Part shown: positions 12,801 through 43,975 of the stretch, piece by piece | Layout: each line of letters begins with the position of its first letter | Numbering within the stretch: position 1 is the stretch's first letter | NCBI GenBank assembly: GCA_963575645.1 | Contig: OY754470.1 | Coordinates: 29,680,501-29,744,500, forward strand | DNA: 64,000 nucleotides | Origin: Xanthostigma xanthostigma | Taxonomy: Eukaryota; Arthropoda; Insecta; Raphidioptera; Raphidiidae | Direction: 5' to 3' | The notes under the pieces: model-generated | What the model saw: only the letters and a program-made list of their open reading frames with translations | Databases searched by the model: none | Told to the model about the DNA's origin: nothing | Translations under genes and position numbers: made by a program

Positions 12801-15800
12801 AAAAAATGTAAACGCAAATAACTTATAAACCAAAAGACATACAGACGTTTGTTTGTGGTCATTGGATTCAGAGTGTTATTTTCTATAAGCATGATGATTT
12901 TGCCAAAGTTCCGAAAAATTTGGATTTTTGTCAAAAATCGCATTTTTTTCAAGGGGTATGCCATGAAAAAATTGCAAAAATTGAATTCTTTAATATACTT
13001 TTGAAATTTAGAAAGCTTACAGAAAAACAGTACATAACAGCTCTTAGTAATGCAGTGTCCGTCTTTTTTTTAGTATTATTGACTGTTCTCTCTTTTATGA
13101 TATGTATAAAAAATGAGTTTAAATGAATTTAAAAAGCCTGCGTGGGTTATTGTCTGACCCGCGGGTCATATATTCGTCATCACTGCCTTAGGGGATGGAT
13201 TTCCAAAAATCCTTTTTTAGTGCTCACCTATGTTATAAATGAACTCCTATGCAAACTTTCATGTCTATAGACCCACCGCTTTGGGCTATACGTTGTCTAA
13301 TAGTTAGTATAGAGTTTTATTAAATAGATGAAGTAAAGATTTATTTTTCCTATACCCTCGACTCCTCGAGTATAAAACAGGATCCTACGGCCGTATGTGG
13401 ATTTCCACATAAGTCATAAAAGTATTTAACCAGGTAGAGCATTAATAATTTCTCTTTAGAGATTTGTCGGAATGATCATCTTCAATTTTAGAGGTAGATA
13501 ATATGTATACATTATCAGGCAGTGAACTTTATAAGTACGAAACGTTTTGTATTTGCTTTCATGTGAAGTTATTTTTGATAGGTATTTCGTAAAGTGTATA
13601 TTTACTTCTGTAATTAAATTCATTATTTAATTATAATCCTAACTATTGAAGTATTCTTAATTGAATGTTTTATTTAAGCAAACTTTCATTACGAAAAGCT
13701 TTGACAAAATATTTGAAAATCAGCTAGATAAAATAAGTAGGTATTATAATTTCATATCTGAATAAAATAACTAATTTATAAACAAAAGTAAAGAGTTTAT
13801 ACTCTTAGAAAATGCTGAAATATAAATAGTAATAAAAAAAAAAATAAAAATATAACCCATGACCCTATTAGATTTTGTTTCATCATCCCTTCTACAATTA
13901 GTATGCAGTTGAGGTCTTTTACTCAGGTACTCGTTTATATAGAATTAATGTTGTAGTCCTAAAACTTAGTATAACTCTAGGCTTCTGCGGATGAACTGAC
14001 ACAAGTTTCGTGTAATCTTTCGAATAATACATTATATTGTAGAATTTTTCAAGTGTATTTATTACTTAACAGTATTATTTGTGTGGCTAAAATAATTTTC
14101 TTTGCTGAGCTTTTTGTGCAACAATTATTGAAAATTATTTAACAGTGATGAAAACCGAAGAAAATGAATTTTTGTTCGGAAAAAAACACACCAGTTTAAT
14201 AATTTCCAGTGATGGGGCTCGATGGCCAGTCAATAAGAAGTGCCTCAAAAAATTTCCACGTTTCGGAATAACAGATAAGAACTACAAGTCAATAAAGGTT
14301 ATAGTGTCACCTTATCCATTTCACGTGTTACTTGGCTGTTTGCGGGCCATTCACAATCTACCAGTTGGAATTCTTGATGACATACATGCAATAGAATACT
14401 TAAGAGCTGCTAAATATTATGGTATTGATAATTTGAAAACCCGGTGCAGATATTATCTCTTATCATCAAATGAACACTTAAAAACATCAATACATATAGT
14501 TTTAAACTATTTTCAAAATGAAGGAATCAATTTTCTGGGAAATGATAAAGATGAAAAAATACGAATTGCATTCCGATATCCGAAAGGATTTAGAAATATA
14601 GCAGGTTATAAAATTGACGGAAGATTAACCACAGATTCGATTGAAACCACCGTGCAGACGATTAAGATTGCTGAGAAGTTTAGATTGCATAAATTGCTGT
14701 TTTATTCGGTACATAGCCTTTTATATGGTGATATTGGCCCTGTCAAGACGTGCCGAAATACTGAAAGAGATTGGATAAAAACTTTATGGTTGCTAATAAC
14801 ATATGAAGCTGGATATATGTTTTTTAGAAAATTATTAAGAGAAATTTTTAGGAATATTGGAACAATTTTAAAAAATGGCAGTTATAATTTTCTAATGATA
14901 TTCTTTGAAATTCCTTATCTTTTAAGGACGTAGGTCAGTTTTCAGGATCGTTTCGAACCCTTATTTCAGGATTTTTTTATAACAAAATAAGATACATTCA
15001 ATTCAATTATATGTAATTTAGTGAACTTTGTTACTCAATAAATAAAATTATCGACCAATTTTTCAGACAAATATATTAACAAAAAAATATAAATTTAATA
15101 CATTAACGTTTCGGTCCGGATTTGAATCTTCTTCAGAACTGATCTAAAAAATATAAAAATGAATTAATATTTAGTATTGGTTGATAATTTTATTTATTGA
15201 AGAGTTCTAATCAGATGTTAATCAAAGATTTGAACTTTGTTATTTTTATTGTATTTTTGTTATATGTATGAACAATATATTTTAAAATTAAAACTTGTCA
15301 CCAGATCGATTCTATCTTGTAACTACTTCAAACAATAATTAATTTGTTGAACTCTCCTATGTAACTAATTGTCACTAACGTGTTTTCATAACAGTTATTA
15401 AAAATTTAAACTCGAAATGTTAGCGGTTCAGTTTCTTTAAATTGATTCTGTGAATAAAAAGCGCACACGTTTCAAGTTTCAAAATCAAAGCCACGAAGTT
15501 TTCAAGGTAATGTATAATTTATATTTGAATTTGAACTTGTTTAACATATATCTCAATTTTCAAAATGTGTTACATTTTGACTTGAGAAATAGTTTTGTTC
15601 AAAGAAAAACCATCCGATTATTTACTAAAGACGATTTTAATCAAAAATCTGCGATAAACCTTTTTTAAATGGCTTGTTAAGAGAATCACGCAAGCTGTCG
15701 TCCCGTACAAAACTTATCCAGTGTTTTACATACTGTAAAAAAAACTGTTCTAGTTCGTGGTGGAAATTATTTATTTACCCAAACGAAAAGTACTTCTTTA

Positions 15801-18800
15801 ACGTAACAGAAACAAAACAACAAATTCTGACTAATATAATAAAAGAATAAGTAACGAATAATATAAAGTCACTAATTATGTACACAAAATATTTACAATA
15901 CAGGAAAACACCACAATTTTATTCACACGTATCTATTAACTATATACACACAAGAAGTTATTTATGTTAAACCAGATTTATATAACTGCACTCAATGGTT
16001 TATTAAACCACACTACACTACTGTACCGACTGAACAATTTATGTCACAGCTATTTGTATACCGCTGTAGGATATGTCTGCGTATCACTGTATCAATGAAT
16101 GCCGACTCTGACTGACTGACTGACTCACCGAGCTCGTTATATTTATAGGCGTTGGGTAGGCTTTCCAGAATGTTCTGGAATTCGGCAACAAAGCCCTTTT
16201 TATCTATACGCATATTGTTGGAACATTAAGCCGATTTATTTGCCCCACAACAATCTGTGTATCATTGTCAGAATGACGAGCCGATTGTTGTTAGACATAA
16301 ATGTGTGTCTTTGTTAGAATGACGACTCGATTGTGGGAGTGTGTAACAATAAAAAATATATGAACAAGGAAATCTTCATATAGAGTTCGTTCATCATTGA
16401 ATTTTCGTATTCATTATGGATTAATGAGCCAAAATGTTCTAAAAAAAATGTAGTATATAAACCAATTTGTTCTAGTAAGCTTGGCGTGATCTTTCCATAG
16501 ACATTCTAAATTTTCCCGTTCATTCATGGTGGATGCACAGTCAAATACATAGATCCAATTATAATTTTTAATCTCTTGGGGGTTACTGTAACTGCGCAAG
16601 CGAAAGCGCATGTTTGCACACTGCCTTCCCTAAAGGGATAAAGAAAAATGACAGCTTCTAGACCTTTCATTCGAACAGAAAGTAAATCGTTGTGGATATT
16701 TTATACACAAAACATTAATTGAATATTAACACAATCTATATCAATATTAATTGTCAATAAGCATTTTAAGCGATATTTATTTTTTGTACCATTTTAAAAT
16801 TTGTATGGTTTAAAGTATTTAAATGCCATGGAGTTTAAGTGAATCATCGAACCATGTTAAGAGATATATTTTTTAGAAGGTGAAAACAAATTGAAACCCA
16901 AAAAAATAACGACACACATTCTGAACCAAATTGCGTTTAAATTTTTCAAATCGGTTATCTCTTCGAAAAATTATGGCAGAACAAACATTAAAAAAATATA
17001 TATGTTACCGGCCAAACCCGATTTCAGGACAAACTAGTTTGGCATACTATTCTTACTAGGCCAAACTAGTTTGTCCTGAAATCGGGTTTGGCCGGTAACA
17101 TATATAATGTATTACGAATATTAAATAACTGCGGAAACTTTAGGCTATTTGATCCTTATTTTTAAATTGTCTCTAAATGTTCATATTGCAGTATAAGTAT
17201 TAGTTCATAGGCATTTTTAATTCACTTAAATGTAATCGTTTTATAGGATAAAAAATTTTAAGTTGGCCCAAAAACACGAGCCGCCATGTTTACATACTCT
17301 GATGTCATTCTTGTAGTATACAAACAAATGTCACTCGGTATCATTTACACGAGGCTCGTTTAGTGTTTACTCATGTTTGTGTATCGTGTGTTTATAGTTT
17401 ATACGGGTAAATGTGTGTTTACTATACAAGTCTTACGTCACACTTCAAGCCAACATATCGAGAAGCGTTTTATGACATGTCAAAAAAATGCGATTTTACC
17501 ATTGAAACAATAAATTCTTTAATCGATAAATTGCCGTATTCACATTAATAATTTATTTTGTATATAGTGTCAAATAGCCTATTTTGTTGTTAGTGAAATG
17601 TCTAGGTAGAATAAATCGTAGATAGTCGAGGGTGAAGAGTGAGAGAATTATACAGAAGGGGAAGTGGAAAATACAACATTTACTTTCCGAATCGGTGATC
17701 AAACAATTTTCATAGTTAACAAGATCACGTTATGTATAGAATTGAAAGCAGGGAGACTGTATAGTTTCTGGGTTTAGTCTAGGTATGTTTCACCTAACGG
17801 TCTAATGTTTCATTTTGTTAGTCATCATCAATCATTTCATTACCGGACAATATTAATTCTCGTGTTAATTGTTATCACCCACTAGTTTTCATTACCAAAC
17901 TATTCCTTTACATTAATTGTGAAGTAATCATTAAAGAGAAACTTGATATTTTCTTCATTATTAACACAACTTCCACAAAGTGAAATCTTTACTAATATTA
18001 TAAAAAGGAAGCGTTTGCATGTTTGTCACGGGTAATCTCAGGAACAACTGTACTTACTGGTTTCAAAATGTTACTTCTTCCCGAGTAGGGTTGCCAGGTG
18101 TCCGGCTTTTGCTCTGTGTACTTTTAATTAAAGACTTTTTGATATTTTTCAAAAGTCTGCAATTGTTATTTTTTAATAAAGATCTTTTCGTTTTTATCCA
18201 AAAGAATGGATAATATTTTTGATTTGGTAAACTATGTTGTGTTGATCTTCTGGGGCAAATGGTTTTCGAAATAAAAAACAAGTTTTTTTAAACGACGTTT
18301 CGTCGACTGGTGTGTCGACCTCTTCAGGCTTTTAATGACTAAATTCTATTGATTACATGACAAACTTATAAACAGGTAACAACAGATTACTAAATGAATT
18401 ACAATAGAATGCCATTAAAAGCCTGAAGAGGTCGACACACCAGTCGACGAAACGTCGTTTAAAAAAACTTGTTTTTTATTTCGAAAACCATTTGCCCCAG
18501 AAGATCAACACAACATAGTTTACCATACTACATGGAGGGCGAAAAAAGATTCAATAATATTTTTGATTTGATTGACAAAAACTATTAGTTTTTTGTATTT
18601 TATAAAAAGAGGGCTACATTTGTTTGTTTGTTTGTTTTTTTTTTTTTAATTTATCTAGGTACTAATAGCATCAATATCATAGGTATAAATACATATGATG
18701 ATATAGGTAGGTAAGACTGTTTGTTGAATGTTCTTAATGTTGTAAGAAAACTATGATTACCACTATTAAATAATAATTAATTAACAACTTTAATACAACC

Positions 18801-21800
18801 CTAACAGAGTTTTTTTTATTATAAATGTGATACCCGGCTTTAAAAACGTATGTATCGCTTCAAAAAGGCATGTTTCATTAAATGTTCAAAATAATTCGTC
18901 ATCGTCACGAATAACGCGACGAATTGTGTTTATTCAAAAACGTATATTTTTCACATCTAACAAATAAACGGTGTGGCTCCCCAACAAATCGCTGAACTGA
19001 TATTTATACAGAAATAAAAAAGGCATTCCTAATTTGAAGAGTAAATTGTTATTGAAGTATGTACCTTTTTAAACGCATGCGAATATATTTTCATAGACGA
19101 CAGTACAAAACATTCTACCTGAAAAATTAAAAATATTTAAATGTTCTAAATTAATCATTCGCACAAAAAAACCCTGTCAACGTCTCTACAACCGACTACA
19201 GAGCGAGCTCACTGCTCAGTCTCTCCCACTAGCTTCACCACGGGGTTCCCGACCAGCGCAGCGTTTCGTTACAATCGCATGAATCAAAGTTGCTGTACCG
19301 TGCGTAAAGAAGTTTCACTCAAAATATATTTTAGTAGATATAACGTTTTAAGGGAATGGATAAAAAATCAGCATAAGCCATAAATGAATCAGATTTCCAG
19401 GCAGCAACATGGCAAGGTTTTCATTAAAAGGCCATTCCGAAAGTTGAGTGAAGAACTACTACAACTTAGTAGAAACAATCTTCGTCTCGTGGTAGGCCTC
19501 CTGACAGGACACTGTTCCCTGAAAGGACACCTCCAAAGAATCGGACTGTTTAAAGGGGACTTAAAGTGCAGACAGTGCAATAAGGAGACGGAAACAGCGT
19601 ATCATATTCTGTGTGAATGCAGAGCTTTGGATCGTAGAAGACAGATAATAATTTATGGACAATGTAGAGTGAGTCTAGAAGATTATATCAATCAATTAAT
19701 AAGAAAAATCGCAGGATTGTGGACAAAAAGTTAGATTTATTAATGTCTAAATGGATAAATCTATAGATTTAGACTTTTTCAAGTACAATATGAAAATTCC
19801 AAGCAATTATTTTGAAAATAAACATTAATTGCTAACTGTTAGTAGAAGTTTTGCTCCAAAATATGTACTGAAGGAGATTTATTTGGTTGAGGAACAATTG
19901 AAAATAAGCTTTACCAGTGTATCGCTTGTGGCCAACGTTTCGAAAAATATATTTTCATCATCAGGGCCTATGAACATGTATAATATTCGTTACATATATT
20001 ATTATAATTTCTAACTTACATTATAAACATGTTTATAATTATAATTTCTAACTTACATTATAAACATGTTTATAATTATAATTTCTAACTTACATTATAA
20101 ACATGTTTATAATTATAATTTCTAACTTACATTATAAACATGTTTATAATGTAAGTTAGAAATTATAATAATATATGTAACGAATATTATACATGTTCAT
20201 AGGCCCTGATGATGAAAATATATTTTTCGAAACGTTGGCCACAAGCGATACATTGGTAAAGCTTATTTTCAATTGTTCCTCAACCAAATAAATCTCCTTC
20301 ATTAATTGCTAACCATATAATCTGACTTTTTGTCCACAATCCTGCGATTTTTCTTATTAATTATTATCTGGATGGAGACGATATCTAATATATATCAATC
20401 ACCCAATTCACGGACTGCACAAACTAGTGCAAGGAACGAGGATACTGGACCGAGTGATATAAGAGATTGGGAGATAGCACAATAAGCCCAAGAGGCTGCG
20501 ATGTTCCCGGTGACAAGCCGATTCCCGTTAATTAAAAAAAAGATATAGTGTTATTGTAAACATATTCTGGTAGCTACCATAATGTTCAGCAATTAACTGG
20601 ACTCATGTTTCAAACAGAAATTGCAGTTAGGAGATATTGATAGAGGGCCCGTGATGCGTAGGTATTTTCCTGTAATAATCCTTACGATACGTCGGCAAAT
20701 ATAAATACTTCTAGAGCATCTATAAATGTGTACATAATAACATAAATGTTAATTTAGTGAAGTGGCATAAGCAGTTTGGATTGCAATAGGCTCCAGTCCC
20801 CTGTTTTTGTTGTGCGTCTTACAGTTCGGAGTTGCTATCAGCAACTAGATGCCTTTTGATGTTCACCGACCGACGGTGTACTTTACCCTCTACTACTCGT
20901 ATATCTAAAACAAGTTTTTACTCAATCAAGGGTTATCGACTGAATATCTAATAGAATTTTAATAAAAATACCATTCTGCTATTATAACAAATAAAAAAAC
21001 CGGCCAAGTGTGAGTCGGACTCGAACACCAAGGGTTCCGCACAACGTGTACTTATGTAAATAGTTCGTCCATAACGGGAATCGAGACTCGAAGATTTTTC
21101 CCGCTTAGCAGTTTGCCAACAAAGCATGTAATTGCAATGAGTTCAGATAGACTACTGAAGTGTATTGTAACTCGTGGCTATATCTGATAGCCTAAATGTC
21201 GTACCATGTCGTATGCGAGAGTTATCATATACGCACCGGTAGCTCCCGTGTTCTTGTTATTTTTTACCAGTTCTACTTCATCACTATAGAAGTGGTTACT
21301 AAACGGCTACTTTCATTGTTTTATATAATATGTCACCGGGATATTGTCAAATCCGTGATATTGTAATTTCACTAGTGAAATTTATTACAATATCACGATT
21401 GACAAAGAGTCGTGATATTGTAATTTCACTAAGTGAAATTATAATATCACGGGTTTGACAATATCCCGGTGACATATACACATATGTTTTTGGAATCAAA
21501 AGAAGTGTTAGTTCTTAAAAGACGGGTGGGTAGTCACTACGCGCGTTGAATAATCTCACATGCTAGGACTGAAAGCATAACGAAAATTGAAACACATCCG
21601 TCTTAACTTACTAGCGGATTACTTCGTAATCCCCTCTCCCGTGCCTTTCACTGACGCACGTGGAGAGTATATAGATGTTTCACTTTTCGTTATGCTCTAA
21701 TTTATTTGAATGTAAACTAGTGATGTGTCGCTCCTGAGCGAGTCGTTCATAATGAACGACTCCTTTCTCGGAGCAGAGCGAGTCGCTCTTTTTTTTGTGA

Positions 21801-24095: not shown

Positions 24096-24244
24096 CTGAA
24101 ATCAAAATGAATTACGAAATTAAACTTTTAATAATCTAAAACCAGAATCGATATCGATTAAGACTGCATATGCTATCGGTATTTAGAAAAAGACGAACGG
24201 TGCTCTCTCATATTAATGTTGTCATCACTACATTATATAATCTA

Positions 24245-25263: not shown

Positions 25264-25264
<1 letters not shown>

Positions 25265-28024: not shown

Positions 28025-28055
28025 GAGCGCTTTCGGACAATTAGTCCATATTAAG
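28025..28055 (-). ncRNA. Degenerate hammerhead-like motif at Penelope 3' end
   Basis: The minus strand reads CTTAATA, T, helix GGAC/GTCC, GAAAGCGCTC. Two core G positions of CTGANGA are T, so it should be inactive. It lies about 490 nt beyond the endonuclease stop, where Penelope-like elements carry their terminal ribozyme. Confidence 0.5.
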
Positions 28056-28540: not shown

Positions 28541-29333
28541 TCATTCAGTGGATTTATGTTTGAATTCTAAAATTTGAAAATAGTTACTAGGATCGTAATT
28601 ATAGTTTTCATTATTTAAATGAGAAGCAAAGCTGGACTTATGGCTGTAAATATTTTTTAAATCTGTAATGTGTTCTTTAAACCTGGTACGGAAATTTCGA
28701 CCGGTTTGGCCTATGTAGCTTGCTCCACATTCACAAAGTAACCGATAAACACCGCAATTATCTAAAATATCGTCCTTATCTTTAATTTTCACTAAATATT
28801 TTTGTAAATTCTGAGAATTTTTGAAAGAAATGTTAATATTGTAACGTTTAAATATATTTTTTAGACTATAACAATTACTGTTGAAAAACGGTAAAGAATA
28901 AAATTTGGAATGTGGAAAAATCTCTGAAAACATGAGTGTACTGTTTGAACTTAAGTGATTTTTAAAAAGAAATCTGTTGTAAATTTTTTTTAATGAAATC
29001 AATTGGAAATTCATTAGTGGTGCCTATCTGGATGATAGTTTTCAATTCTATTAAAAAATTTTGTTTATTCAAGGGGTAATTGAATAGTCTATGAAAAGCA
29101 CTATTATGTTGTATTAGATGATTCGAAGAAAAGGGTATGCAGTGATCTGTATGGGTCTGTTTTCGGAATATTTTAAATTCAATAAAACCAAAATTATTGC
29201 GTGAAAGAGTCAAATCTAGAAAATTTAAGCTTTTATTTGATTCCACTTCTAAAGTGAATTTTACTCTATTGTTATAAGTATTCAGATTATTTAATAAATC
29301 AATCACTTCGTTACGTTTGTACGTAATACGCAA
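28541..29333 (-). pseudogene. Penelope-like retroelement fragment: RT thumb plus GIY-YIG nuclease
   Basis: Two overlapping minus-strand frames represent the end of one Penelope-like polyprotein. The first (29333 to 28962) has VKFTLEVESNKSLNFLDLTL and HTDHCIPFSSNHLIQHNSAF, typical of the region after the YxDD motif of the reverse transcriptase. The second (down to 28541) has CGVYRLLCECGASYIGQTGR and then FRTRFKEHI, the GIY-YIG endonuclease. The frames are offset near 28962-29014, implying a frameshift. The RT fingers/palm and YxDD are absent, so the copy is 5'-truncated and dead. The degenerate hammerhead motif at 28025-28055 is in its expected 3' position. Confidence 0.85.
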
Positions 29334-29498
29334 AAAAAATTATTTCTTAAAAAAATGTTTGTATTAAAAATTTTGTGTTCATATCATGTTTAATGGGTAT
29401 GTGTTAAAACTTTGATACTGAGAGTTAATTCGGCTAAAGAAATAAATGAAGGAGGTAAAAATATCACTTTTTGCTTTTGTTTAGATTTATTCTTTCGT

Positions 29499-32264: not shown

Positions 32265-32518
32265 CAGGCCTGGGCAAATGGCGGCCCGCGGGCCGGATCC
32301 GGTCCGCAGTAGAATTTTATCCGGCCCGCGAAGCATTTTATAAATGATTATTAAGAGCGAAAATAGTTTGCCAATATAATAGCAAGGGCCACAACAGACG
32401 AAAAAAGACCTTTTTGTTGCAGAAATGAAAGTTTTTTTTTTGCTTTTCAAATTGCTGGCCCACGGTCAAATTTTCATCAGCAATGTGGCCCGACGATCAA
32501 AAGATTTGCCCGCACCTG
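32265..32518. mobile_element. Short hAT-type MITE
   Basis: The ends are CAGGCCTGGGCAAA and TTTGCCCGCACCTG, and the interior has GGCCCGCGGGCCGGATCC. The flanks GTATAGAC and ATATAAAC match at 6 of 8 positions. Confidence 0.7.
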
Positions 32519-32947
32519 ATATAAACAGAATGTACCTATTGTTTTAATGTGTAAGACAGCCAGGTAAAACGTGTTTTTTTGCTAAAATGTCGGCGTACAA
32601 TACTTTGTAAAGCTTGTTAAGACATAGCAAAGGCAATTGAATTTTATTATCACAGTATTGGCGTTTTTTAAACTATTATTAAATTTAATTTCAAAGCTTT
32701 AGAAAATACATATAAAGCGCGCCTATCTAGATTAAAATAAAAATATATTTATTTGAAAATCACTTATAAACTTTAAATTAAAGATAAAAACAAACTAGAA
32801 ATAAAATACTTTTAGAATCTATTTCATCAATACTTACTTATTTCTTAAGGTACATGACTTGACTGCAAATAAAGTCAATTATAAATTTGATACGAGACCT
32901 GAGGCCAAATAACGAACTTACGGTTTCATCTTACTCCGTAAGCCAAC

Positions 32948-33429
32948 TTCACCGAACGTAACTATTCCTCCGAATAAACAGCGTTAGTTCTATTCACCAA
33001 GCATAATTAACCTGCAGGTATAAATCTATTCTGTCTTATTTCGAGGGTATAAATATTTATTGGCCTGATAATATAATAATGGCCGTCACATAGATCGTAA
33101 TACCTAACCTATAAACGTGGAGTATTATATCTACAGTTGCTTTATGAATTTATGTTGTTTATTAACCTTTTGTGAAGTGCTTAGTTAGTGGAAGTTTTGT
33201 GTGCAATTATGTTAGGATAAAACATTATTATTTTGTGAATTTTTTTTTGACGTTTACACTAACGCCATCGGTCGGTCAAAATATTCAACAAAAAAGAGCT
33301 GTGTGTATTTATTCTTTAACTAACTTTTCTATTCGATATTTTTCTTGGTGATTTGAAAGTAAATTTTATTCTAACGAATAAATTTGTTCCGTGATTAGTA
33401 ACTTCTATGTTTAATAGTGCTCGGTGAAT
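32948..33429. mobile_element. MITE with TTCACCGAAC termini, copy 2
   Basis: It matches 6402-6989 over its length with internal deletions. It ends in GCTCGGTGAAT. Confidence 0.8.
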
Positions 33430-34005
33430 AAAAAAAAACACGAGACAGTAATGATTGATACTGCGATCCTTCTAAGATATTGGTCCTTCCTGTATTCTGC
33501 GTGAAATCAACAAAAAGTTCTATTCCTTGAATAAATTATGAGTTTCATCAATACGAAGACAGGTAAAAGAAGAACTGTGATCGCTCCATGTATAGCAGAG
33601 GGGTTGAATATTGAGGGGTGAGGTGATGATGCACCATCGTTATAGGTATCTTTGTATATTTTATTAATGAACGTCGTCCCCTTTTTACAAGCCGCGCGTG
33701 TGTATACTTGGTTAGTGGACCCACAGTTGACATTAGTGTACGCTCCGCACAGGGAGGGTGAATTCTGTATTGCATGTTCGAGTGACGTCAAAACAATGGT
33801 CCTGTCAAAAATATACATGAAACTGTTTTTCTCGAGCATCAGGCAAACGATCCTTTGACGATATATCTATGGACTTGCAATGTTAGTTTCACTCTGGATT
33901 CCAAGACCTGTGGCGACACGTCGTTCCAATAGCGGTCAGCGCCGTAAACTTAAACTGACAACCAGGGCCCACGCAAAATCAACAATGCAATTATGATTGT
34001 TTTCC
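33430..34005. other. Non-coding DNA with two overlapping minus ORFs, not supported
   Basis: The frames at 33507-33839 and 33548-33775 overlap on the same strand and match no family I recognise. They are not called as genes. Confidence 0.4.
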
Positions 34006-34402
34006 AAATCTTCTTGGTTTCCGGGCTTGTATGCCGTGGTTCATTGGTATTTCTACCTGTCGTTTCGTCTACAACTGCAGTAGACATTATCAAAGGCGAT
34101 GTGGTAGCGGGCGATGTGTCCTTCTTGGCTGCTCACAGGTAAGTGTGTCGACAAATGTGGTACTTCCGTCTTTTATGGTCAGCGTGCTCGTGTTCTCTAC
34201 TCGGTCGTAATATGCTCTTCTGTGATTGGTCGTTCCATTCAGTGGGTTGGTATTGCACAGTGCTGGTGTCCAGGTTTTACTTAGATTCAAACCTTCATCT
34301 TTGCCACATCACCTTTGATAATGTCTACCGCAGTTGTAGACGAAAAGTCAGGTAGTAATACCAATGGACCACGGCATACAAGCCCGGAAACCAAAAAGAT
34401 TT
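34006..34402. repeat. Fold-back with ~99-bp arms
   Basis: 34006-34104 and 34304-34402 are reverse complements sharing CCGGGCTTGTATGCCGTGG, TCGTCTACAACTGC and AGACATTATCAAAGG. The spacer is 199 bp. Confidence 0.9.
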
Positions 34403-34555
34403 GGATCAACACCGGCCGTGAAAGCCTACACACTTGAATATGATTGTTTTGTTTTAATATACCAAGAACCAAAATTTTAAGGCCGCAACTTTTGCGAAAT
34501 CAGAATCTTTCCATGGATGCCGGTGAATTAAGCTACAGCCCTAGTGGCGGTAAAG

Positions 34556-34982
34556 CTAAAGACCGCTGCACACGACGCTGGATTTGCCGCAAGATTCCTT
34601 GCAAGATTTAACTTCTAGTTTTATAGCGCTGGTTTTCTTGATTGCTTTTATGTGCTCGTTTCACACAAGACGTCTATTCAAGCTTGTTGTGTAGGTAGGT
34701 TCGGTGCGCGCACAGTGATAGAACGGTAACAAAAGTGGACGTTTATTGTCTCTGAACAGAACACACACTATGGCAGTTTGTTTGTGGGGGCTTGTTCATG
34801 TCGCCCACGTGACAAGATACTGTTTCCTGATTGGTTCTTGCTCAGAGCAAGCACAGATACAAGTAAGAAAAATAGCCCCTGTTCTAATTTTAAAATCTAT
34901 CTGTGAGTAGCAGGCGAGCCCGCAGTGACGTCAGTTTCAGCCTCGTAGCCACCATACAGAAGTCCCAGCAGTGTTTCTAGTT
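34556..34982 (+). mobile_element. AAGGCCGCTGCAC family copy
   Basis: It begins TAAAGACCGCTGCACACGAC, contains GTGACAAGATACTGTTTCCT, and ends with a decayed terminus at CAGTGTTTCTAG. Confidence 0.75.
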
Positions 34983-35855
34983 AAGCAGTTCAGATCCTAG
35001 AGTATATTTATTTGCTGGGAAAGCGCTTCTAGTTTTTCTTTTCGCTTATCACATTTCTAACGGTATTCGCCATTTATGCTGGGACTCGGGCCTCTTTCTA
35101 ACAATCAAACAAGTTTATGTGACCGGTTATGCTATATGGTTATTGTGGCCATCGGACTTGCTACAGGATTGTCTTTACGTGTAATCGAAGCGGATCCACA
35201 AAACAAGAAAAAGAAATAACTGTTTTATCTATTTTTGTAAATTTATTTTGCCTTATAAATAATTTAAATAATTGTACATACATGCTGTTAGTCACAATTA
35301 ATGACTAAAATAAATTATTTAACAAGATATAAAATGTAGGATCCGTGGCAATTTCTTATTCTTACTACACTCTCGATTTGTTTTGACACCGTGATATCAG
35401 TTATTTTTGTCATGCAATTTGCACCCATGAACTTCAATTTTATATTATTTTTTACCGAGTCACTAAAGCAGAAATATGGGGAGGGGTCGTTGTCAGTGGA
35501 ATATGTTTACACGTCAATAAAATTAATAATGACCATAATTGTTGAGAAGTTTGCCAGCCACTGCCGTGTTCATCATGCATGTCATGAAAATGTCATTAGA
35601 CAGTCAAGCACCTCTCAATCCGTAAGCAGGTAGAGAATTGCAGGAGACCCTCTCACACAACACGGCAAAGGGTAGGCACTAGGCATGTTCTAATATTCAT
35701 TAGTTTGCATTTCGTTTATATCTTTCCCCCTCTCTCTCGCTCACATAATTCTGTTTCTATTTGCTGATTGAATATCCCTTTTTATATATACACGTATGCA
35801 TATCAATTAGAAAAACCGAATAATTGCTCTCGACAAATCAATACTACGTATACGT
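34983..35855. other. Non-coding DNA, nothing recognised
   Basis: Mixed composition; a CT-rich run lies at 35722-35745. No gene is supported. Confidence 0.4.
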
Positions 35856-36610
35856 ACAACACAAAATTTATCCAGTTATTGTCGCCTTTTTCAAACCGCT
35901 ATATGAATCGGGACTGTATATATAGTTTAGTGGCACAATATTCGTAATGTTGTGAACATGAAGTCTATAATCAGGAAACCTAGCTTCCTATGCTTGCCAT
36001 GTTTAAAAACGGACCGTTTTTTGGCGCACGCGAGATGGCGCTGTTATCACTACCGGAGAAAACTTAGGTTCTTTCCACCAGTTTTCGCTATATTTACCAA
36101 AGTTGTTACAACACAAAATTTATCCAGTTATTGTCGTCTTTTTCAAACCGCTATATGAATCGGGACTGTATATATAGTTTATTGGCACAATAATCGTAGG
36201 TTGTGAACATGAAGTCTATAATCAGGAAACCTAGCTTCCTATGCTTGCTGTGTTTTGAGATGGACCGTTTTCTGGCGCACGCGAGTTGGCGCTGTTATCA
36301 CTACCTGGGAAAACTTCGGTTCTTTTCACCAGTTTTCGTCATATTTACCAAAGTTGTTACAACACAAAATTTATCCAGTTATTGTCGTCTTTTTCAAACA
36401 ACTATGAATCGGGGCTGGATATATAGCTCAGTGGCACAATAATCGTAGTGTTGTGAACATGAAGTCTATATAATCAGGAAACCTAGCTCCTATGCTTGCC
36501 GTGTTTCGAGACGGACCGTTTTCTGGCGCACGCAAAATTGCGCTGTTATCACTACCTGGGAAAACTTTGGTTCTTTACACCTGATTTCGTCATAGTTACC
36601 AAAGTTGTTT
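35856..36610. repeat. 251-bp unit repeated three times in tandem
   Basis: The phrase GAACATGAAGTCTATA recurs at 35954, 36205 and 36455, giving periods of 251 and 250 bp. Each unit has GGCGCTGTTATCACTACC-type and AACACAAAATTTATCCAGTT phrases. Two units share a short ORF beginning MNMKSIIRKPSFLCL, which I read as a by-product of the repeat. Confidence 0.9.
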
Positions 36611-36836
36611 AACTTCACAGACACTACACACATGTAAGCCATGAACGTGTATGCGTTATCTAGTAACTGACGCCATATTGGTTCATGCGACAGATATCGG
36701 TCCACCGCTACGCTCGAGCTGGGTCTCCCGGTTACAGAATTCGCGGTTGTGAATTAGTTATCGTAAATTATTGTCGCTCAGCAACTGCGTTTATGCGAGG
36801 TATGTATGTATGATACAATTGGATTCAGCTGTGGAT

Positions 36837-37294
36837 TAGAGACGTCAGACAAGTAAACTTGGGCATTTTAGTTCACTAAAAAGAACCACAAACGATACTC
36901 TGGTAAAGCTTATTTCAAGCTTGTTCCTCAACCAAATAAATCTCCTTCAATACTAAAAAGAACGTTTAATTTAGTTCATTGTTCTTCCGCGAACTAGTTC
37001 GCTCTTGTAGTTCGTTCGTCTACAGGCTCGAAGAAAAATTAGAATAAGGTAGTGAAACTTACGTAATAACGGACAGAAATGTCAATTCAAGAAATAGAAA
37101 ATTTGTTAGTTTGTTTTTGGAAGGGTATTTAACAAATAAAAAAGCATGATGCACAATATTAATTTATGTCGTTCGCCATCTTCATCGAGTGGTAAATAAT
37201 AGAACTAAAGAACTGATTTTTTGATTACCTGCGACCTAGTTCACTCATAAAAGCGCTCTTCAGAACTAGTTCGTTTACAAACTACACATCTCTA
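36837..37294. mobile_element. hAT-like element remnant with a nested repeat fragment
   Basis: The ends TAGAGACGTC and ACACATCTCTA resemble those of the 21718 element. The subterminal regions have repeated GAACTAGTTCG phrases. 36899-36957 is a fragment of the outer arm of the 19869 fold-back. No flanking 8-bp duplication is found. Confidence 0.5.
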
Positions 37295-37723
37295 GTATAA
37301 TAATTACTAAACAAAGCTAGATTTTTCTTTGACTAATAGATGCAGCTTTTTTATCTCTAAATAGTACCTACCTATTTACTAATGTCAAATATCGAAATGT
37401 TGACAATGAAAATATATTAAAAATATAAGTAAAACCAGTGGGAGTATATGCCCAAGTAATTCAAGAATTACAAGGCGCGAAATTTTACGTCATATACCCC
37501 GGTGTTTTGTTTGAAAATCGGTGTATATATAATTATATTTAACGACACTTGGAGAATAATATAGTATAACTTAATTTACTTATTCTAAGAAAAAAATAAC
37601 AGTTGAAAATAATGAAACACAGAAAGGAAAATATAATTTTAATAATTTCATGGTTCTCTATGTAATATGTTATTGTGTCATCCAAAAATTAAACCTAACT
37701 AACATCTTCAGAACAAAAGAACA

Positions 37724-38203
37724 ACAGATTTTTTTTCAAAATATTTCTGAAATTATGAGTTTAGAAAAAAAATTTCATAACTTTCTTGTAAAAACAGATA
37801 GAAAAATAAACCGTTATGAAAAGTACCCAATTATTATATAAAAACAACTTTATAACATACCTATATGTGCCGACTTTAGCTCAAAGAATTTTTTACAAAA
37901 CTTTCTTTAAAATAAAATAATAAAACATTATAAAAAGTACACCATTATTATATAAAAAACAACGATGGCATGTATCTCTTTTGCGCATGCGCCGATTTTT
38001 CCCAAAAATTATACAAAACTCTTGTAAAAATAGATCGAATAATAAACAGTTATGAAAAGTATACCATTGTTATATACAAACAACTTTATAACTTATACCT
38101 CTTCTGCGCATGCGCCGACTTTCCCTCAAAAAACATTTACAAAACTTTCTTGTAAAGTAGAATAATAAAACATTATAAAAAGTACACCATTATTATATAA
38201 AAA
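37724..38203 (+). repeat. Diverged ~125-bp tandem units with GCGCATGCGCCGA
   Basis: About four units share ACAAAACTTTCTTGTAAA, TATGAAAAGTA and ACCATTATTATATAAAAA; several have GCGCATGCGCCGA. A related unit follows the 120-bp array (40481-40622), and an inverted one lies at 61472-61612. Confidence 0.75.
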
Positions 38204-38395
38204 AATTGGATGTCTGTAAAGTCGGTTTACGGACGATAGTTTTACGTGATAAAGTATTCCGCTCGAATATCATATTTAATAATACATTACTGCGCTCTCG
38301 CTTGCGCGCACAGGGTCAGGCGGAACGTTACACTTTTTCGTGCGTGCAGCTGGTGTTTCATCAATTTATAAGACGTTATCACGTCAAAAACTTAG
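38204..38395 (+). mobile_element. Dispersed element with ACGTGATAACGT subterminal inverted repeats, copy 1
   Basis: It starts TTGGATGTCTGTAAAGTCGG, includes GTTTTACGTGATAAAGTATT near the left end, and ends ACGTTATCACGTCAAAAA. The 120-bp array starts immediately after it. Other copies: 49752-50296, 54899-55486 (split) and 55726-55973 (inverted). Confidence 0.7.
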
Positions 38396-38400
38396 TCCAC

Positions 38401-40481
38401 CTTCTTTAGAAGTCCGTCATATTGGATTTAGAGTGACGTCACTTTATTTTTCGAGTTATTCTCAGCAAGCCCTTTCATTTGATACCCATATTGTAGGAAA
38501 GCATAATAAAATTAGTCCGCCATCTTTAGAAGTCCGCCATATTGGATTTAGAGTGACGTCACTTTATTTTTCGAGTTATTCTCAGCAAGCCCTTTCATTT
38601 GATACCCATATTGTAGGAAAGCATAATAAAATAAGTCCGCCATCTTTAGAAGTCCGCTATATTGGCTTTAAAGTGACGTTACTTTATTTTTCGAGTTATT
38701 TTCAGCAAGCCCTTTCATTTGATACCCATATTGTAGGAAAGCATAAAAAACTTAGTCCGCCATCTTTAAAAGTCCGCCATATTGGTTTCAGACTGACGTC
38801 ACTTTATTTTTCGAGTTAATCTTAGCAAGCCCTTTCATTTGACACCCATATTGTAGGAAAGCATAATAACATTAGTCCGACATCTTTAGAAGTCCGCCAT
38901 ATTGGATTTAGAGTGACGTAACTTTATTTTTCGAGTTATTCTCAGCAAGCCCTTTCATTTGATACCCATATTGTTGGAAAGCATAATAAAATTAGTCCGC
39001 CATCTTTAGAAGTTCGCCATATTGGATTTAGAGTGACGTCACTTTATGATTCGAGTTATTCTCAGCAAGCCCTTTCATTTGATACCCATATTGAAGGAAA
39101 GCATAATAACATTAGTCCGCCATCTTTAGAAGTCCGCCATATTGGATTTAGAGTGACGTCACTTTATTTTTCGAGTTATTCTCAGCAAGCTCTTTCATTT
39201 GATACCCATATTGTAGAAAAGCATAGTAAAATTAGTCCGCCATCTTTAGAAGTCCACCATGTTGGATTTAGAGTGACGTCACTTCATTTTTCGAGTTATT
39301 CTCAGCAAGCCCTTTCATTTGATACCCATATTGTTGGAAAGCATAATAAAATTAGTCCGCCATCTTTAGAAGTCCGCCATATTGGATTTAGAGTGACGTC
39401 ACTTTATTTTTCGAGTTATTCTCAGCAAGCCCTTTCATTTGATATCCATATTGTAGGAAAGCATAATAAAATAAGTCCGCCATTTTTAGAAGTCCGCCAT
39501 ATTGGATTTAAAGTGACGTAACTTTATTTTTCGAGTTATTCTCAGCAAGCCCTTTCATTTGATACCCATATTGTAGGAAAGCATAATAAAATTAGTCCGC
39601 CATCTTTAGAAGTCCGCCATATTTGATTTAGAGTGACGTCACTTTATTTTTCAAGTTATTTTCAGCAAGCCCTTTCATTTGATACCCATATTGTAGGAAA
39701 GCATAAAAAACTTAGTCCGCCATCTTTAAAAGTCCGCCATATTGGTTTTAGACTGACGTCACTTTATTTTTCGAGTTAATCTCAGCAAGCCCTTTCATTT
39801 GATACCCATATTGTTGGAAAGCATAATAAAATTAGTCCGCCATCTTTAGAAGTTCGCCATATTGGATTTAGAGTGACGTCACTTTATGATTCGAGTTATT
39901 CTCAGCAAGCCCTTTCATTTGATACCCATATTGAAGGAAAGCATAATAACATTAGTCCGCCATCTTTAGAAGTTCGCCATATTGGATTTAGAGTGACGTC
40001 ACTTTATGATTCGAGTTATTCTCAGCAAGCCCTTTCATTTGATACCCATATTGTAGGAAAGCATAATAACATTAGTCCGCCATCTTTAGAAGTCCGCCAT
40101 ATTGGATTTAGAGTGACGTCACTTTATTTTTCGAGTTATTCTCAGCAAGCTCTTTCATTTGATACCCATATTGTAGGAAAGCATAATAAAATTAGTCCGC
40201 CATATTTAGAAGTCCGCCATATTGGATTTAAAGTGACGTCACTTCATTTTTCGAGTTATTCTCAGCAAGCCCTTTCATTTGATACCCATATTGTTGGAAA
40301 GCATAATAAAATTAGTCCGCCATGTTTAGAAGTCCGCCATATTGGATTTAGAGTGACGTCACTTTATTTTTCGAGTTATTCTCAGCAAGCCCTTTCATTT
40401 GATACCCATATTGTAGGAAAGCATAATAAAATTAGTCCTCCATCTTTAGAAGTCCGCCATATTGGATTTAGAGTGACGTCA
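38401..40481. repeat. 120-bp satellite-like array, 18 units, CRE palindrome in most units
   Basis: Eighteen units are in exact 120-bp register. Each contains GCCATATTGGATTTAGAGTG, TTCTCAGCAAGCCCTTTCAT and TTGATACCCATATTG or close variants. TGACGTCA is intact in 15 units; units at 38641, 38881 and 39481 have TGACGTTA or TGACGTAA. Because 120 is a multiple of 3, one frame stays open over 159-218 codons in three blocks (repeat SYSQQALSFDTHIVGKHN), interrupted by stops. I see no independent evidence of translation. Confidence 0.95.
38434..40481. promoter_or_regulatory. Regular series of TGACGTCA sites
   Basis: The first site is at 38434-38441 and others follow at multiples of 120 bp. TGACGTCA is the established consensus for CREB/ATF bZIP dimers. 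Whether the sites are bound or act on the ChAT locus is unknown. Confidence 0.35.
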
Positions 40482-40622
40482 CCGATTTTCCCCAAAAAAA
40501 TTACAAAAATTTCTAGTAAAAATAGATAGAGTAAAAACCGTCTTAAAAACTATATTATTATTATATAAAACAACATTATAAGAGATATATTCTTTTACGC
40601 ATGCGCCGATGTTCCCCAGAAA
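40481..40622 (+). repeat. Single ~125-bp unit closing the array
   Basis: It begins CCGATTTTCCCCAAAAAAAT and ends near ACGCATGCGCCGATGTTCCC, the same family as 37724-38203. The 120-bp array thus sits between members of the second repeat type. Confidence 0.7.
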
Positions 40623-40656
40623 CAATAGTCCACTTCATATTTGCATATCAAACATC

Positions 40657-41340
40657 CTCCCAAAATTTGGTTTTAATCCGCTCATCCTTGGTGTCGGAAT
40701 GATAAGAAATGTCAAAAGTGACGTTTGCATCTGTCAAAGTATTAAGTTCTAATAATTAGTTATTCAAATTGTTAACTTAGAAGGCGTTGCATTTCAGAAA
40801 TATTCGAAACGGCATCCGTTTTTGAACAAATGCTATCTTTTAATTTCATTATTGTCATAAATAAAATTATCGACCAATTTTATTTTAAGACTGAACATAC
40901 GCAATAATTATATTACCATGTTATACCGTGCAACAGAGAGAGATAACCGAAAGATGTTTGCTATCGGTTATATCAGATTGAATTTATTTCTATATAAATG
41001 TGTATAAAAAAACTGATTGGGCGAATTCTGTTGTACGAAATTTTTATGTAAAATTTTCTCCTCTTTCGTTTAAGACAGGTTTCGAACCGATCTGATTTAA
41101 ATTGAGCGAGTTATAAGCGAAAAACTTCGTTTTTTCTAAATTGCTCCCCTCTGGAGCAAAAATTCAAAAATCGGGCGACGTTAGGATTTAAGTTACCCGG
41201 AGACGAATCGAACAAAAAAAAGTTTTTTAAAATCGGTTAAGGCGTTTGGGCTGTACGCTGGATACAAAAAGCGTGACTCACAGATTCACAGATTCACAGA
41301 CAAAGCGAGTACATATAGGCGCTTTAGCTTACGCTATTCG
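40657..41340 (+). mobile_element. LINE-like interspersed repeat, copy 1
   Basis: It contains CCTCCCAAAATTTGGTTTTA, AATGATAAGAAATGTCAAAA and, later, CCGATCTGATTTAAATTGAG, and ends with GATTCACAGATTCACAGACA. 54971-55325 is a second copy. No frame survives. Confidence 0.6.
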
Positions 41341-41388
41341 CGCCTAAAAACTCAATATTTTATTGAAATTTGGTAAATGTATTGTTGA

Positions 41389-41871
41389 AAAGATTTTTAA
41401 GAAATGAAACCAACTCCAAAATGTGTTCTTTATAAAATTCATAACAGTATGTAATTCCTTTAATATGATAAGCTGCTTTCGTAACACATCGTTACATCCT
41501 CAAATGTATATGTCTAACAAATTAAGAAATTAAATTTTTTTTTGGAACTGTATCCATTTACATTAAGAATTATTTTTTATAAAAACAACAAATTCTCATT
41601 TTTTTATCAAATCATTTTATTTCCATTGTGAATTATTGCCAAGTATCGTTAAATGATTAAAAATTAATGATTTTTCACATGTTGAAAATTTATTTACAAT
41701 TTTTAAAATAAATGACTTTTAAAGCCATGTTACTGCGCACAGGTACATCTTTTTTTCAAGATGTAACGATGTATTACGAAAGCGGCTTATCATATTAAAG
41801 GAATTACATACTTTTATGAATTTTATAAAGAACGAATTTTGGAGTTGGTTTTTTCTTAAAAATCTATTCAA
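41389..41871. repeat. Inverted repeat with ~110-bp arms
   Basis: 41389-41498 and about 41760-41871 are reverse complements sharing GTAATTCCTTTAATATGATA and CCAACTCCAAAAT/ATTTTGGAGTTGG. The AT-rich spacer is about 260 bp. Confidence 0.85.
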
Positions 41872-43824
41872 TATGGTTCGCCAAAAAATCTCAATTTCAA
41901 TAAATGTATTGTGTTTGGTGTGTGTGTGTTGTTGCTATTTAGTGAAAAAGAACCTACTGTAGGTTTTCCTTTTTCTGGAAAAGGTAAGGTTTTGATTAAA
42001 ACTGAAAATATATAAAAACGCGGAGTAACATGTCCATAGCATTTATCTTATTTATTACCTAAGCTTTTACAAAGCAAAATATTCTATAATTTATTTCTTT
42101 AACATGAAAATTTGTGTAAGACAATTCTGCTTCCATTCCTCTTTAATAGTCTTGAGACTTACACTTAGCTAATTCACTTAAAAATATTACCACTGAAAAC
42201 CTGCGCCTTCACCGCATTACGGTGGAAGTGCAGAAAATACGCACATAATAATATGGTTTTAACATTTTTGGGGTAAAACAAATGAATCGAGCTTTAATAA
42301 ATTTAATAATAATTTAACAAGCACTTTAGGTTGCTTTACCTAAGGGTGCAAGTTTTTTGTATCTTCAATACATTCTAAATTTAAAGTTACATTTAGTCTC
42401 GCATTTTAAACCATCTAAAAAACTATATTACCAAACTGATCCGAATTATTGAACCAACTACAACACAAAAAATATCTGACATCAAAACTGACTACCGAAT
42501 ATTGGGATCCATACAAAATATCGAATCAAATTCGTGCAATTGGGAATTTTCTCTGAGGTTGTGCATTTGAAATTGGCGCGTGTCGGTCAAACAGTGCGGT
42601 GCGCATTACAGATAATGTGCTACAGAAGAAAATGTCAATACGTCATGCGCGGTGATACATTGCGTCGCTGTTGATCGTCAGTTGTTTGTGTGCGTTTACA
42701 CTTATAACACAGATAGAGCCAGAGTTGGTAGCAACGACACGCAGAACTGTGTTTACCAATGACATCATCACTTACTAGACTGTCAACTGTTCAATTTATT
42801 ACGCGATTTAAAATACTACTTTTTTTAGCCAACTATGAAATTTCTAGTATAGTTATTTATTTATAATTGTCATATTATGACTTTAAATTCTCATTATCGG
42901 CAGAAATTAGCTTTAGTTACAACAAAAAAAATTATTTACAAATAGGTATAGATCGCAGAAAAAAATAATCATTTTATAAATATCTTTGACAGGTAAATCC
43001 CAAAGTAAAAATCATTTTTACAGGGGTTGAACTGTATTTCATTTGTATTCCCTAATAATAATATCAAAAACATTAATACACCTCTGACAGTTAAAAACAG
43101 TGAAATAAAATACTGCCACACATACATTTACAGAAAATAACATTAAAACTACGCGACATAATACATCTGTCTCTTTTTTAAATCACAATTATAGGGCTAT
43201 TGCACATTTTTTTGAAAAGTATTTTAAATGAATCCTAAAGTGATAAAGAAGCACTACAATTTTTATAATAACGTTTTATAACTGAATAGTGCCATAAAAA
43301 CACCTTTTAATTTATCATTATGAATGTTGGCGCGAAAACGTCTCGTGACGTCACTATGATTGTAAATAATAACGATAGTGTACAGTAACTATAGTAACAC
43401 TGTACGATTAAAAATTTTTAAGATTGCTGTGGTTATTACATTACCAGTGTATAAGTATAAAAATTAGTAAAACTTTATTTATTTATTAAACGTATTTATC
43501 CTTGGCAGATTAGCACTTTCTGCTTTTGCCAAACCGTTTTTCAAGATGCGAAACCAATAAAATACGCAATAGAAGTTTATAAACGTGATAATAATTTGAA
43601 ATAACTTCAAAATAACACACAGCACAACATAAACGAAGGTAGTTTACAGACGAAGTGACGTCACGCCGGAATCCGACATGGCGAACAGCGTTTTAGACTT
43701 TTGAAGAACAAATTGTAAAATACAATTCTTAAAATTGAATTATAAAATTTATAAGTGCATTACAATAAATAGAAAACAACATTTCTCGTTTGCTTTTTAC
43801 AAGATCTATCAAGAATATGTTTTA
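41872..43824. other. Long stretch without a recognised element
   Basis: Mostly AT-rich. A GC-richer patch at about 42570-42780 (TTGGCGCGTGTCGGTCAAAC and onward) contains a TCAGTT initiator-like motif near 42679 on the plus strand. No ORF or splice structure supports a gene. Confidence 0.4.
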
Positions 43825-43975
43825 AATCTTTGATTAACGTCTGATTAGAATTCTTCAATAAATAAAATTATCGACCAATTTTTCAGACAAATATATTAAC
43901 AAAAAATAATAATTAATACATTAACGTGTCGGTCCGGACTTGGACCTTCTTCAGAACTGATCTAAAAAATGTAAA
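43825..43975. repeat. Hammerhead-bearing repeat, second copy
   Basis: It matches 15036-15160 and the inverted flank at 15180-15232, starting AAATCTTTGATTAACGTCTG and continuing AATAAATAAAATTATCGACC. Confidence 0.75.
43923..43954 (-). ncRNA. Hammerhead ribozyme-like motif 6 (core mutated)
   Basis: The minus strand reads CTGAAGA, A, perfect helix GGTCC/GGACC, then GACACGTT. One catalytic-core A is C, so cleavage is not expected. The perfect helix helps establish the consensus. Confidence 0.5.

What the first reader, a model, noticed from the sequence alone, without database searches (positions are those of the whole stretch)
15105..43954. Seven hammerhead-ribozyme-like motifs from four repeat families share one layout with a covarying helix
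Seen: CTGANGA, one base, a self-pairing helix, then GAAACGTH at 15105-15136(-), 18294-18327(-), 18423-18456(+), 19934-19964(-), 20206-20236(+) and 43923-43954(-), with a decayed form at 28025-28055(-). The helix is GATTC or GGTCC/GGACC, GTCGAC/GTCGAC, GAAAA/TTTTC and GGAC/GTCC, so pairing is kept while sequence is not. That is evidence of selection on RNA structure. Known: the hammerhead core is CTGANGA..GAAA..TH, and Penelope-like elements carry minimal hammerheads. Unusual here: all have one extra base between CTGANGA and stem II, and stem III would be a single pair closing CG.
Basis: partly seen in the sequence, partly recalled or inferred. Interest (0 to 1): 0.8.

Follow-up and report, generated by a model that had tools for sequence, protein, structure and literature searches.

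The report
Minimal hammerhead ribozymes of Penelope retroelements
The repeated motifs match the small self-cutting RNA modules of Penelope-type jumping genes, a known kind, here lying in old, mostly two-armed insertions and present in about 20,000 copies in this genome.

Summary
Five of the seven listed sites hold the layout exactly, one has a single core change, and the seventh (28025-28055) is a decayed copy, shown by homology to intact relatives. Three more likely sites, with a U3-A8 core, were missed (34059-34093 -, 34315-34349 +, 47574-47605 +). In the 623 Mb genome the pattern occurs 20,908 times against 108 for the reversed pattern. In 17 chosen families stems I and II covary strongly, each with one unpaired base after CUGANGA. 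Stem III reads as a zero-loop palindrome that can pair only between two copies. Of Penelope-like (PLE) loci, 14 of 14 in one set and 4 of 12 in another carry the motif near the ORF at E <= 0.01.

So these are the published minimal type I hammerheads of PLEs: a new member of a known kind. The window copies lie mostly in two-armed insertions with target-site duplications. In 27 of 29 scored two-arm insertions of one family, one arm has the long tail and one lacks it, as two known reverse-transcription start sites would give. Copies do not pile up at the predicted cut site. Cleavage was not tested.

The parts
15105..15136 (-). Hammerhead, family A copy 1; core intact, stem II with one A-C mismatch, stem I 3 bp; in an insertion whose second arm is a short piece of tail (about 15176-15234), between 12-bp TSDs (15022-15033 / 15231-15242)
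18294..18327 (-). Hammerhead, family B, left arm; core intact, stem II GTCGAC/GTCGAC, stem I 4 bp
18423..18456 (+). Hammerhead, family B, right arm of the same insertion
18210..18570 (.). Two-armed insertion B with its 17-bp target-site duplications (18210-18226, 18554-18570), tails outward
19934..19964 (-). Hammerhead, family C, left arm (long-tail arm); stem II GAAAA/TTTTC, stem I GGCC/GGCC
20206..20236 (+). Hammerhead, family C, right arm (short-tail arm)
19823..20313 (.). Two-armed insertion C with 14-bp target-site duplications (19823-19836, 20300-20313); a 37-bp tandem repeat lies at its centre
36886..36953 (+). Family C tail only, single-arm insertion with 12-bp TSD (36875-36886 / 36952-36963); its mapped 5' end lies 3 nt after the predicted cut site
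43923..43954 (-). Hammerhead, family A copy 2; stem II intact, core GAAA changed to GACA
28025..28055 (-). Decayed hammerhead, family D, downstream of the PLE ORF remnants; intact in relatives (CTGAAGA..GAAAGCGCTT)
28541..29339 (-). Penelope-like ORF remnants: C-terminal RT part and GIY-YIG endonuclease (two frames); identity by my reading of the GVY..YIG motif and by genome relatives; no relevant Pfam or PDB match
34059..34093 (-). Likely hammerhead with U3-A8 core, left arm; stem II 6 bp, stem I 4 bp with one G-U (read by eye), U16.1 changed (GAAACGAC); not found by model R1
34315..34349 (+). Likely hammerhead with U3-A8 core, right arm of the same insertion (GAAAAGTC); stem II 6 bp, stem I 4 bp; 12-bp TSDs 33992-34003 / 34439-34450; not found by model R1
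47574..47605 (+). Likely decayed U3-A8 hammerhead (G12 changed), stem I 4 bp, stem II 5 bp; R1 match at 47568-47611, E 3e-4

Best explanation
The motifs are minimal type I hammerhead ribozymes belonging to several families of Penelope-like retroelements (PLEs). In parent elements the motif lies 250-510 nt after the ORF and, where a second unit follows, again just before or at the start of the open frame, so a transcript through head-to-tail units holds two sense copies. Each copy alone lacks stem III; the palindrome from A15.1 to U16.1 (ACGU, AGCGCU, ACUAGU, ACAUGU) would pair between two copies to give a double hammerhead that cuts after H17, or the element's own protein would assist folding as in the lizard PLE. 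The window copies are remnants, several with core changes: they are 5'-truncated insertions made by target-primed reverse transcription on both DNA strands, which leaves two arms head-to-head with tails outward between target-site duplications. Shown here: covariation of stems I and II, link to PLE ORFs, two-armed insertions with TSDs. Inferred: that RNA cleavage happens, that it needs a dimer or the protein, and the both-strands route of insertion.
For: Genome count 20,908 versus 108 for the reversed pattern. Over 98 distinct copies (not all independent), stem II of at least 4 bp occurs with exactly one extra base in 79, with none in 0 and with two in 1; for 121 pattern matches in viral contigs the same counts are 15, 11 and 5. 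Over 17 families stems I and II pair in 90.3% of cells; covariation 0.912 against at most 0.173 for slid partners. PLE loci L141-L154, found by protein and so not chosen by the motif, have a match to model R1 at E <= 0.01 in 14 of 14 (about five sequence families; two of the loci gave sequences to the model); in L141, L143, L144 and L146 two sense copies lie 2.7-3.1 kb apart. Stem III middles read as CG, GCGC, CTAG and CATG are exact palindromes with no loop. Neighbours closer than 2 kb among the first 100 listed genome matches: 20 minus-plus, 3 plus-plus, 1 plus-minus. TSDs in the window and in relatives. Published precedents.
Against: None of 24 Rfam matches at E up to 10 is a hammerhead. 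No activity data. Copies were mostly found by the core letters, so core conservation among them is by construction; only the PLE loci found by protein test it. The 17 families were picked by me and some are related (A, A2, A3; K, K2). 5' ends of family-C copies do not pile up at the predicted cut site: exact starts at +1: 20, at +3: 13, at +5: 28. Family PLE143 (GAAAUGUA) has only a wobble palindrome, and two C copies read GAAACATT. The scan also lists non-palindromic middles, most of which I read as other registers of the same sequences or as chance. The window's own PLE family has the motif at E <= 0.01 in only 4 of 12 loci. R1 misses 28025, 34059 and 34315. Folding programs do not return the hammerhead as minimum for every monomer.
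Confidence: 0.92

Rival explanations
1. The motif is a PLE hammerhead by descent but is now kept for another RNA role, such as a protein-binding or packaging structure of PLE RNA, and ribozyme activity is lost or marginal. (Not exclusive of the family membership claimed above.)
For: No family read has a looped stem III; the lizard PLE hammerhead cuts only with its protein and inserts equally well with a dead ribozyme; no pile-up of 5' ends at the cut site.
Against: In PLE families found by protein search the core CUGANGA / GAAA is kept while both helices differ, and in one family C3-G8 is replaced by the pair U3-A8, which fits the hammerhead fold rather than a plain hairpin.
Confidence: 0.2
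2. They are classic three-stem hammerheads or retrozymes whose stem III has simply decayed.
For: Metazoan retrozymes also carry type I hammerheads with weak helix III. One canonical-looking sequence without the extra base exists at G000:C1:5417291.
Against: PLE copies with long open frames have no stem III loop and have the one extra base; no Rfam hammerhead hit. Retrozymes are direct tandem repeats; here 20 of 24 close pairs are inverted.
Confidence: 0.04
3. Chance matches or DNA-level repeats (transposon terminal inverted repeats) without any RNA function.
For: The pairs in the window look like terminal inverted repeats.
Against: 20,908 versus 108 in the control; covariation in stems I and II; tails outward, one long and one short, and the link to PLE ORFs fit retrotransposition, not a cut-and-paste transposon.
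Confidence: 0.01

Closest known systems
Minimal type I hammerheads of Penelope-like elements (Cervera and De la Pena 2014; Luense, Weinberg and Breaker 2017; neither held, known from passages of PMC7761336, PMC6155905, PMC6466107 and from recall)
   Same: Core, stems I and II, no helix III nucleotides beyond the core, in pseudo-LTRs, thousands of dispersed copies, expected to act as dimers
   Different: Here one extra base after CUGANGA in the 17 families chosen; whether those papers report it could not be checked
PAc, Poseidon element of Anolis carolinensis (PMC11167929, main text section read)
   Same: [quoted passage not shown] cut site 26 nt downstream of the start codon, which equals A9 to H17 in family C (inference); both DNA strands cut and extended; two RT start sites bounding the tail
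   Different: Activity was measured there; sequences differ; the PAc ORF begins inside the hammerhead, while in L143 and L144 the first Met of the frame lies after it
Penelope copies of Adineta vaga (PMC3846280, passages read)
   Same: Inverted pseudo-LTRs head-to-head, TSDs of 8-10 bp, tail on one of the inverted pLTRs
   Different: Authors suggest self-priming on an antisense template; no hammerhead in the passages read
Hammerheads with U3-A8 in place of C3-G8 (PMC3088659, section 8 read)
   Same: Same paired core change, seen in nature before
   Different: Here in a PLE family (L141 and relatives) and in three likely window sites, with no stem III

Membership tests
Minimal type I hammerhead of PLEs | Conserved core CUGANGA / GAAA / UH (or paired C3-G8 to U3-A8) | tested here: met
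   By construction for copies found by pattern; independently in PLE loci found by protein. Window: five sites intact, the others with changes
Minimal type I hammerhead of PLEs | Stem II pairing kept by covariation | tested here: met
   81 of 85 cells over 17 families; slid controls
Minimal type I hammerhead of PLEs | Stem I pairing next to C3 and H17 | tested here: met
   47 of 51 cells for the first three pairs; at least 3 bp in 63 of 98 single copies
Minimal type I hammerhead of PLEs | No intramolecular helix III; palindrome allows a dimer | tested here: met
   PLE143 only by wobble; some copies mutated
Minimal type I hammerhead of PLEs | Lies in the pseudo-LTR of a PLE | tested here: met
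   14 of 14 loci L141-L154 and 4 of 12 loci L129-L140 at E <= 0.01. For families A, B and C no ORF-bearing parent was sought
Minimal type I hammerhead of PLEs | Self-cleavage after H17, as dimer or with protein | not testable with these tools
   needs transcripts; the genomic footprint test was negative
Three-stem hammerhead (Rfam Hammerhead families) | Match to an Rfam hammerhead model | tested here: not met
   24 matches at E up to 10, none a hammerhead
Three-stem hammerhead (Rfam Hammerhead families) | Looped stem III | tested here: not met
   no loop in the families read
PLE insertion | RT plus GIY-YIG ORF in relatives | tested here: met
   GIY-YIG read by motif, Pfam gave no relevant match for the window fragments
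PLE insertion | Target-site duplication and inverted pseudo-LTR with tail on one arm | tested here: met
Metazoan non-LTR retrozyme | Direct tandem repeats of about 150-300 bp with one hammerhead each | tested here: not met
   20 of 24 close pairs are inverted tail-outward, 3 are direct, 1 is plus-minus

The most novel reading that the evidence does not exclude
PLE insertion is an obligate two-strand, two-start-site reaction: each two-armed insertion takes one arm from the distal and one from the proximal reverse-transcription start site, never two alike. In family C 27 of 29 scored two-arm insertions follow this; of the two that do not score so, one looks to have a decayed long tail (L180) and one is cut off by the end of the fetched piece (L269); the window's element C fits as well. 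With thousands of copies, this genome would fix the order of events in PLE integration, and the minimal hammerhead, unneeded for insertion, would serve only to separate units of tandem transcripts.
Probability: 0.4. Interest if true: 0.6.

Novelty: new member of a known kind. Interest (0 to 1): 0.42.

Why it matters
[quoted passage not shown] This genome offers over 20,000 exact pattern matches in many families, so core, helix and palindrome constraints, and the way PLEs integrate, can be measured by counting. Two such counts were begun here for one family: copies do not start preferentially at the ribozyme cut site, and two-armed insertions carry one long and one short tail.

Tried and rejected
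Rfam hammerhead models: no hit; the 24 rows are below their gathering scores, and the best are microRNA models matching palindromes. PDB and Pfam for the PLE fragments: nothing relevant. At least seven of the 15 are variants of one sequence; L054 (7 bp) and L080 (4 bp) do resemble the layout and were not followed; L045 and L097 look canonical. PLE protein in viral contigs: none confirmed.

I first took 28025-28055 for chance; homology with relatives overturned that. I first took an excess of 5' ends near the cut site among 111 family-C arms for cleavage (9 arms within 3 nt of the site; by my own estimate 3.9 expected from 49 arms over 76 nt). Whole-genome counts at +1, +3 and +5 (20, 13, 28) do not support it. 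If I leave out forms that GGCC repeats or double transitions could explain, 9, 9 and 20 remain (my reading of the lists). These counts are crude and miss starts whose neighbour letters happen to match. A fourth count, at -5, did not complete. Free folding of monomers and dimers was not informative.

Rows dropped before a count: of 19 sequences named as family representatives, two without stems (L122 at 1501, L166 at 2039) were left out of the 17 as chance matches. In one search, 3 of 69 copies with an inverted match had it downstream, leaving 66 of 98.
Full report
Observation. The pattern CTGANGA..GAAACGTH has 5 exact matches in the window where shuffles give 0.01. A scan allowing mismatches but asking for a stem II of at least 4 bp adds 43923-43954 with one core change; it drops 15105, whose stem II is broken; five Markov-simulated windows gave none with at most one mismatch. 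None of 24 Rfam matches at E up to 10 is a hammerhead.

Genome. The window lies in an unnamed assembly of 623,323,696 bases in 28 contigs. The pattern occurs 10,371 + 10,537 = 20,908 times; the reversed pattern 108 times. The organism was not identified; I take it for an animal from its transposons (inference).

Structure. In 98 distinct copies from fetched loci and the window (both arms of insertions and members of the same family included), stem II of 4 bp or more appears with exactly one unpaired base after CTGANGA in 79, with no such base in 0 and with two in 1; that base is A in 54, T in 40, G in 3 and C in 1. Stem I is 3 bp or longer in 63 of 98. In viral contigs, 121 matches to a like pattern give 15, 11 and 5 for one, no and two extra bases. 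I picked 17 families by tail and stems, leaving out two stemless sequences; A, A2 and A3, and K and K2, are related. Stem II is paired in 81 of 85 cells (shuffles mean 48.0, highest 60) and stem I, first three pairs, in 47 of 51 (mean 24.9, highest 36). On an alignment of the 17, 90.3% of cells pair and the covariation score is 0.912, against 0.120-0.173 when partners are slid. This is selection on RNA structure. The core letters were part of the search, so their conservation is evidence only in loci found by protein.

Model. A covariance model R1 from the 17 finds six of the seven listed sites (E 4e-9 to 2e-7; copies of B and C are in the model) and 47568-47611 (E 3e-4); it does not list 28025, 34059 or 34315, and lists six weaker places with E from 0.09 to 2.3 that I did not pursue.

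Stem III. Between A15.1 and U16.1 the families read as CG, GCGC, CTAG or CATG, each an exact palindrome with no loop; PLE143 has UG, a wobble palindrome. The scan also lists other middles, which I read as alternative registers, single mutants (GAAACATT twice) or chance. A genome-wide search with four free letters there gave 5,557 matches against 1,866 in the control; of the first 100 places about 80 were shown with letters, most look like chance, and the recurring hammerhead-like ones have GCGC. These palindromes cannot close as a hairpin but can pair between two copies. A review states that the dimer form needs palindromic sequence at stem III and, in eukaryotes, tandem copies (PMC6466107, passage).

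Core covariation. The PLE family of L141, L146, L147, L152 and L154 has UUGAUAA, that is C3-G8 replaced by U3-A8. The window probably holds one such pair (34059-34093 -, 34315-34349 +; stem II 6 bp, stem I 4 bp, one change near the cut site in each, 12-bp TSD) and one decayed copy (47574-47605 +). A simulated sequence of the same total length gave 2 motifs at the looser limits of that scan, and a few other U3-A8 rows in the window look like chance. The paired change is known in nature (PMC3088659, section 8).

Link to PLEs. A protein search with the window's endonuclease fragment scored 150 of 1,206 candidate places, seven of them in open frames of 804-873 aa. I fetched 14 loci with long or paired frames; they fall into about five sequence families. 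In 14 of 14 R1 matches at E <= 0.01 (L143 and L144 gave sequences to the model), 250-510 nt after the open frame. In L141, L143, L144 and L146 a second sense copy lies 2.7-3.1 kb away, before or at the start of the frame, and inverted copies follow. Of the 12 loci L129-L140 nearest to the window's own PLE (the window copy included), 4 have the D-type motif at E <= 0.01 and others weaker or none. The window's decayed motif D aligns with 11 of 11 relatives. ORF-bearing parents of families A, B and C were not sought.

Insertions. Among the first 100 listed genome matches, 24 neighbour pairs lie closer than 2 kb: 20 minus-plus, 3 plus-plus, 1 plus-minus. Of the 98 copies, 66 have an inverted copy of their tail within 1.3 kb upstream. 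Of 22 close pairs, 12 have a direct repeat scoring 12 or more in the outer flanks; in 8 of these 12 it exceeds the best of 20 random comparisons, and in the other four it does not (in two because, it seems, the random draw hit a related repeat). In 11 of the 12 one arm is at least 18 nt longer than the other. In the window, TSDs of 12, 17, 14, 12 and 12 bp flank A copy 1, B, C, the C tail and the 34-kb pair. For family C a tail 25-mer with up to one mismatch has 3,412 copies (control 0). The first 100 places were examined, in 80 pieces fetched and four loci already held; with the window this gave 111 arms. An arm was called long if the long-tail letters follow, and short otherwise. Among 29 two-arm insertions (24 within one piece, 5 joined by position), 27 have one long and one short arm and 2 score as short-short, one with what looks like a decayed long tail (L180) and one cut off by the end of the piece (L269). 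In two of the 27 the short arm ends oddly (L304, L309). The window's element C also has one of each. Overall 46 of 111 arms are long. This matches the two start sites of reverse transcription and the cutting and extension of both DNA strands reported for PAc (PMC11167929, main text section), though no start-site difference between strands was seen there in vitro. In Adineta the tail lies on one of the inverted pLTRs (PMC3846280, passage).

Cleavage footprint test. If the ribozyme set the 5' end of templates, copies should begin just after H17. Whole-genome counts of family-C copies that begin exactly at +1, +3 and +5 are 20, 13 and 28. Of the 20 at +1, 11 have the form AGGGCC or GAGGCC, which recombination or foldback at the GGCC repeats of stem I could explain; 4 of the 13 and 8 of the 28 have letters that double transitions could give (my reading). 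So there is no sign that cleaved RNA is the usual template. This agrees with PAc, where a dead ribozyme does not affect insertion and no RNA reads begin or end at the cut site.

How it works. In the parent PLE, a tandem transcript holds sense hammerheads at unit borders; two of them, or one with the element's protein, would fold and cut. The truncated, inverted copies of this window cannot offer two sense copies in one transcript of their own, so they are expected to be inactive in cis (inference).

Novelty. Minimal type I hammerheads without helix III in PLE pseudo-LTRs, present in thousands, are published (PMC7761336 and PMC6155905, passages). The extra base after A9 has a precedent in a viroid hammerhead (De la Pena and Flores 2001, title seen, position recalled). 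The two key papers on PLE hammerheads were not held, so I cannot say whether the extra base is reported there. A search for hammerhead ribozyme, Lepidoptera and Penelope together found no paper, which says little.

Noticed in passing
window 38388-40482: A 120-bp satellite-like tandem array of 17.5 copies, read through in long frames.
   Followed up: no
window 5383-5968, 48697-48906, 9598-9720: Large palindromes without a hammerhead pattern match; the latter two attract microRNA models in Rfam below their gathering scores.
   Followed up: no
window 35855-36609: Three tandem copies of a 251-bp unit, 91% matches.
   Followed up: no
window 63237-63908 (-): Tc1/mariner-like transposase fragment (DDE_3, E 1e-9).
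   Followed up: no
window 19384-19734 (+): Fragment resembling the zinc-binding end of a LINE reverse transcriptase (zf-RVT, below cut-off) next to element C; an inverted 44-bp repeat flanks element C (19694-19737 / 20319-20362).
   Followed up: no
G000:C1:5417291-5417321 (+): A hammerhead-like sequence with canonical layout (no extra base, stem II GTCC/GGAC, GAAACCAGTA) in the list; possibly a different hammerhead class in the same genome.
   Followed up: no
L121 and relatives (family A2): In this abundant family stem I is only one adjacent pair (ATTT / ATC); how it pairs is unclear.
   Followed up: partly
L054:11740 and L080:12754 (viral contigs): Sequences with the same layout, one extra base and stem II of 7 and 4 bp; their context was not examined.
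   Followed up: no
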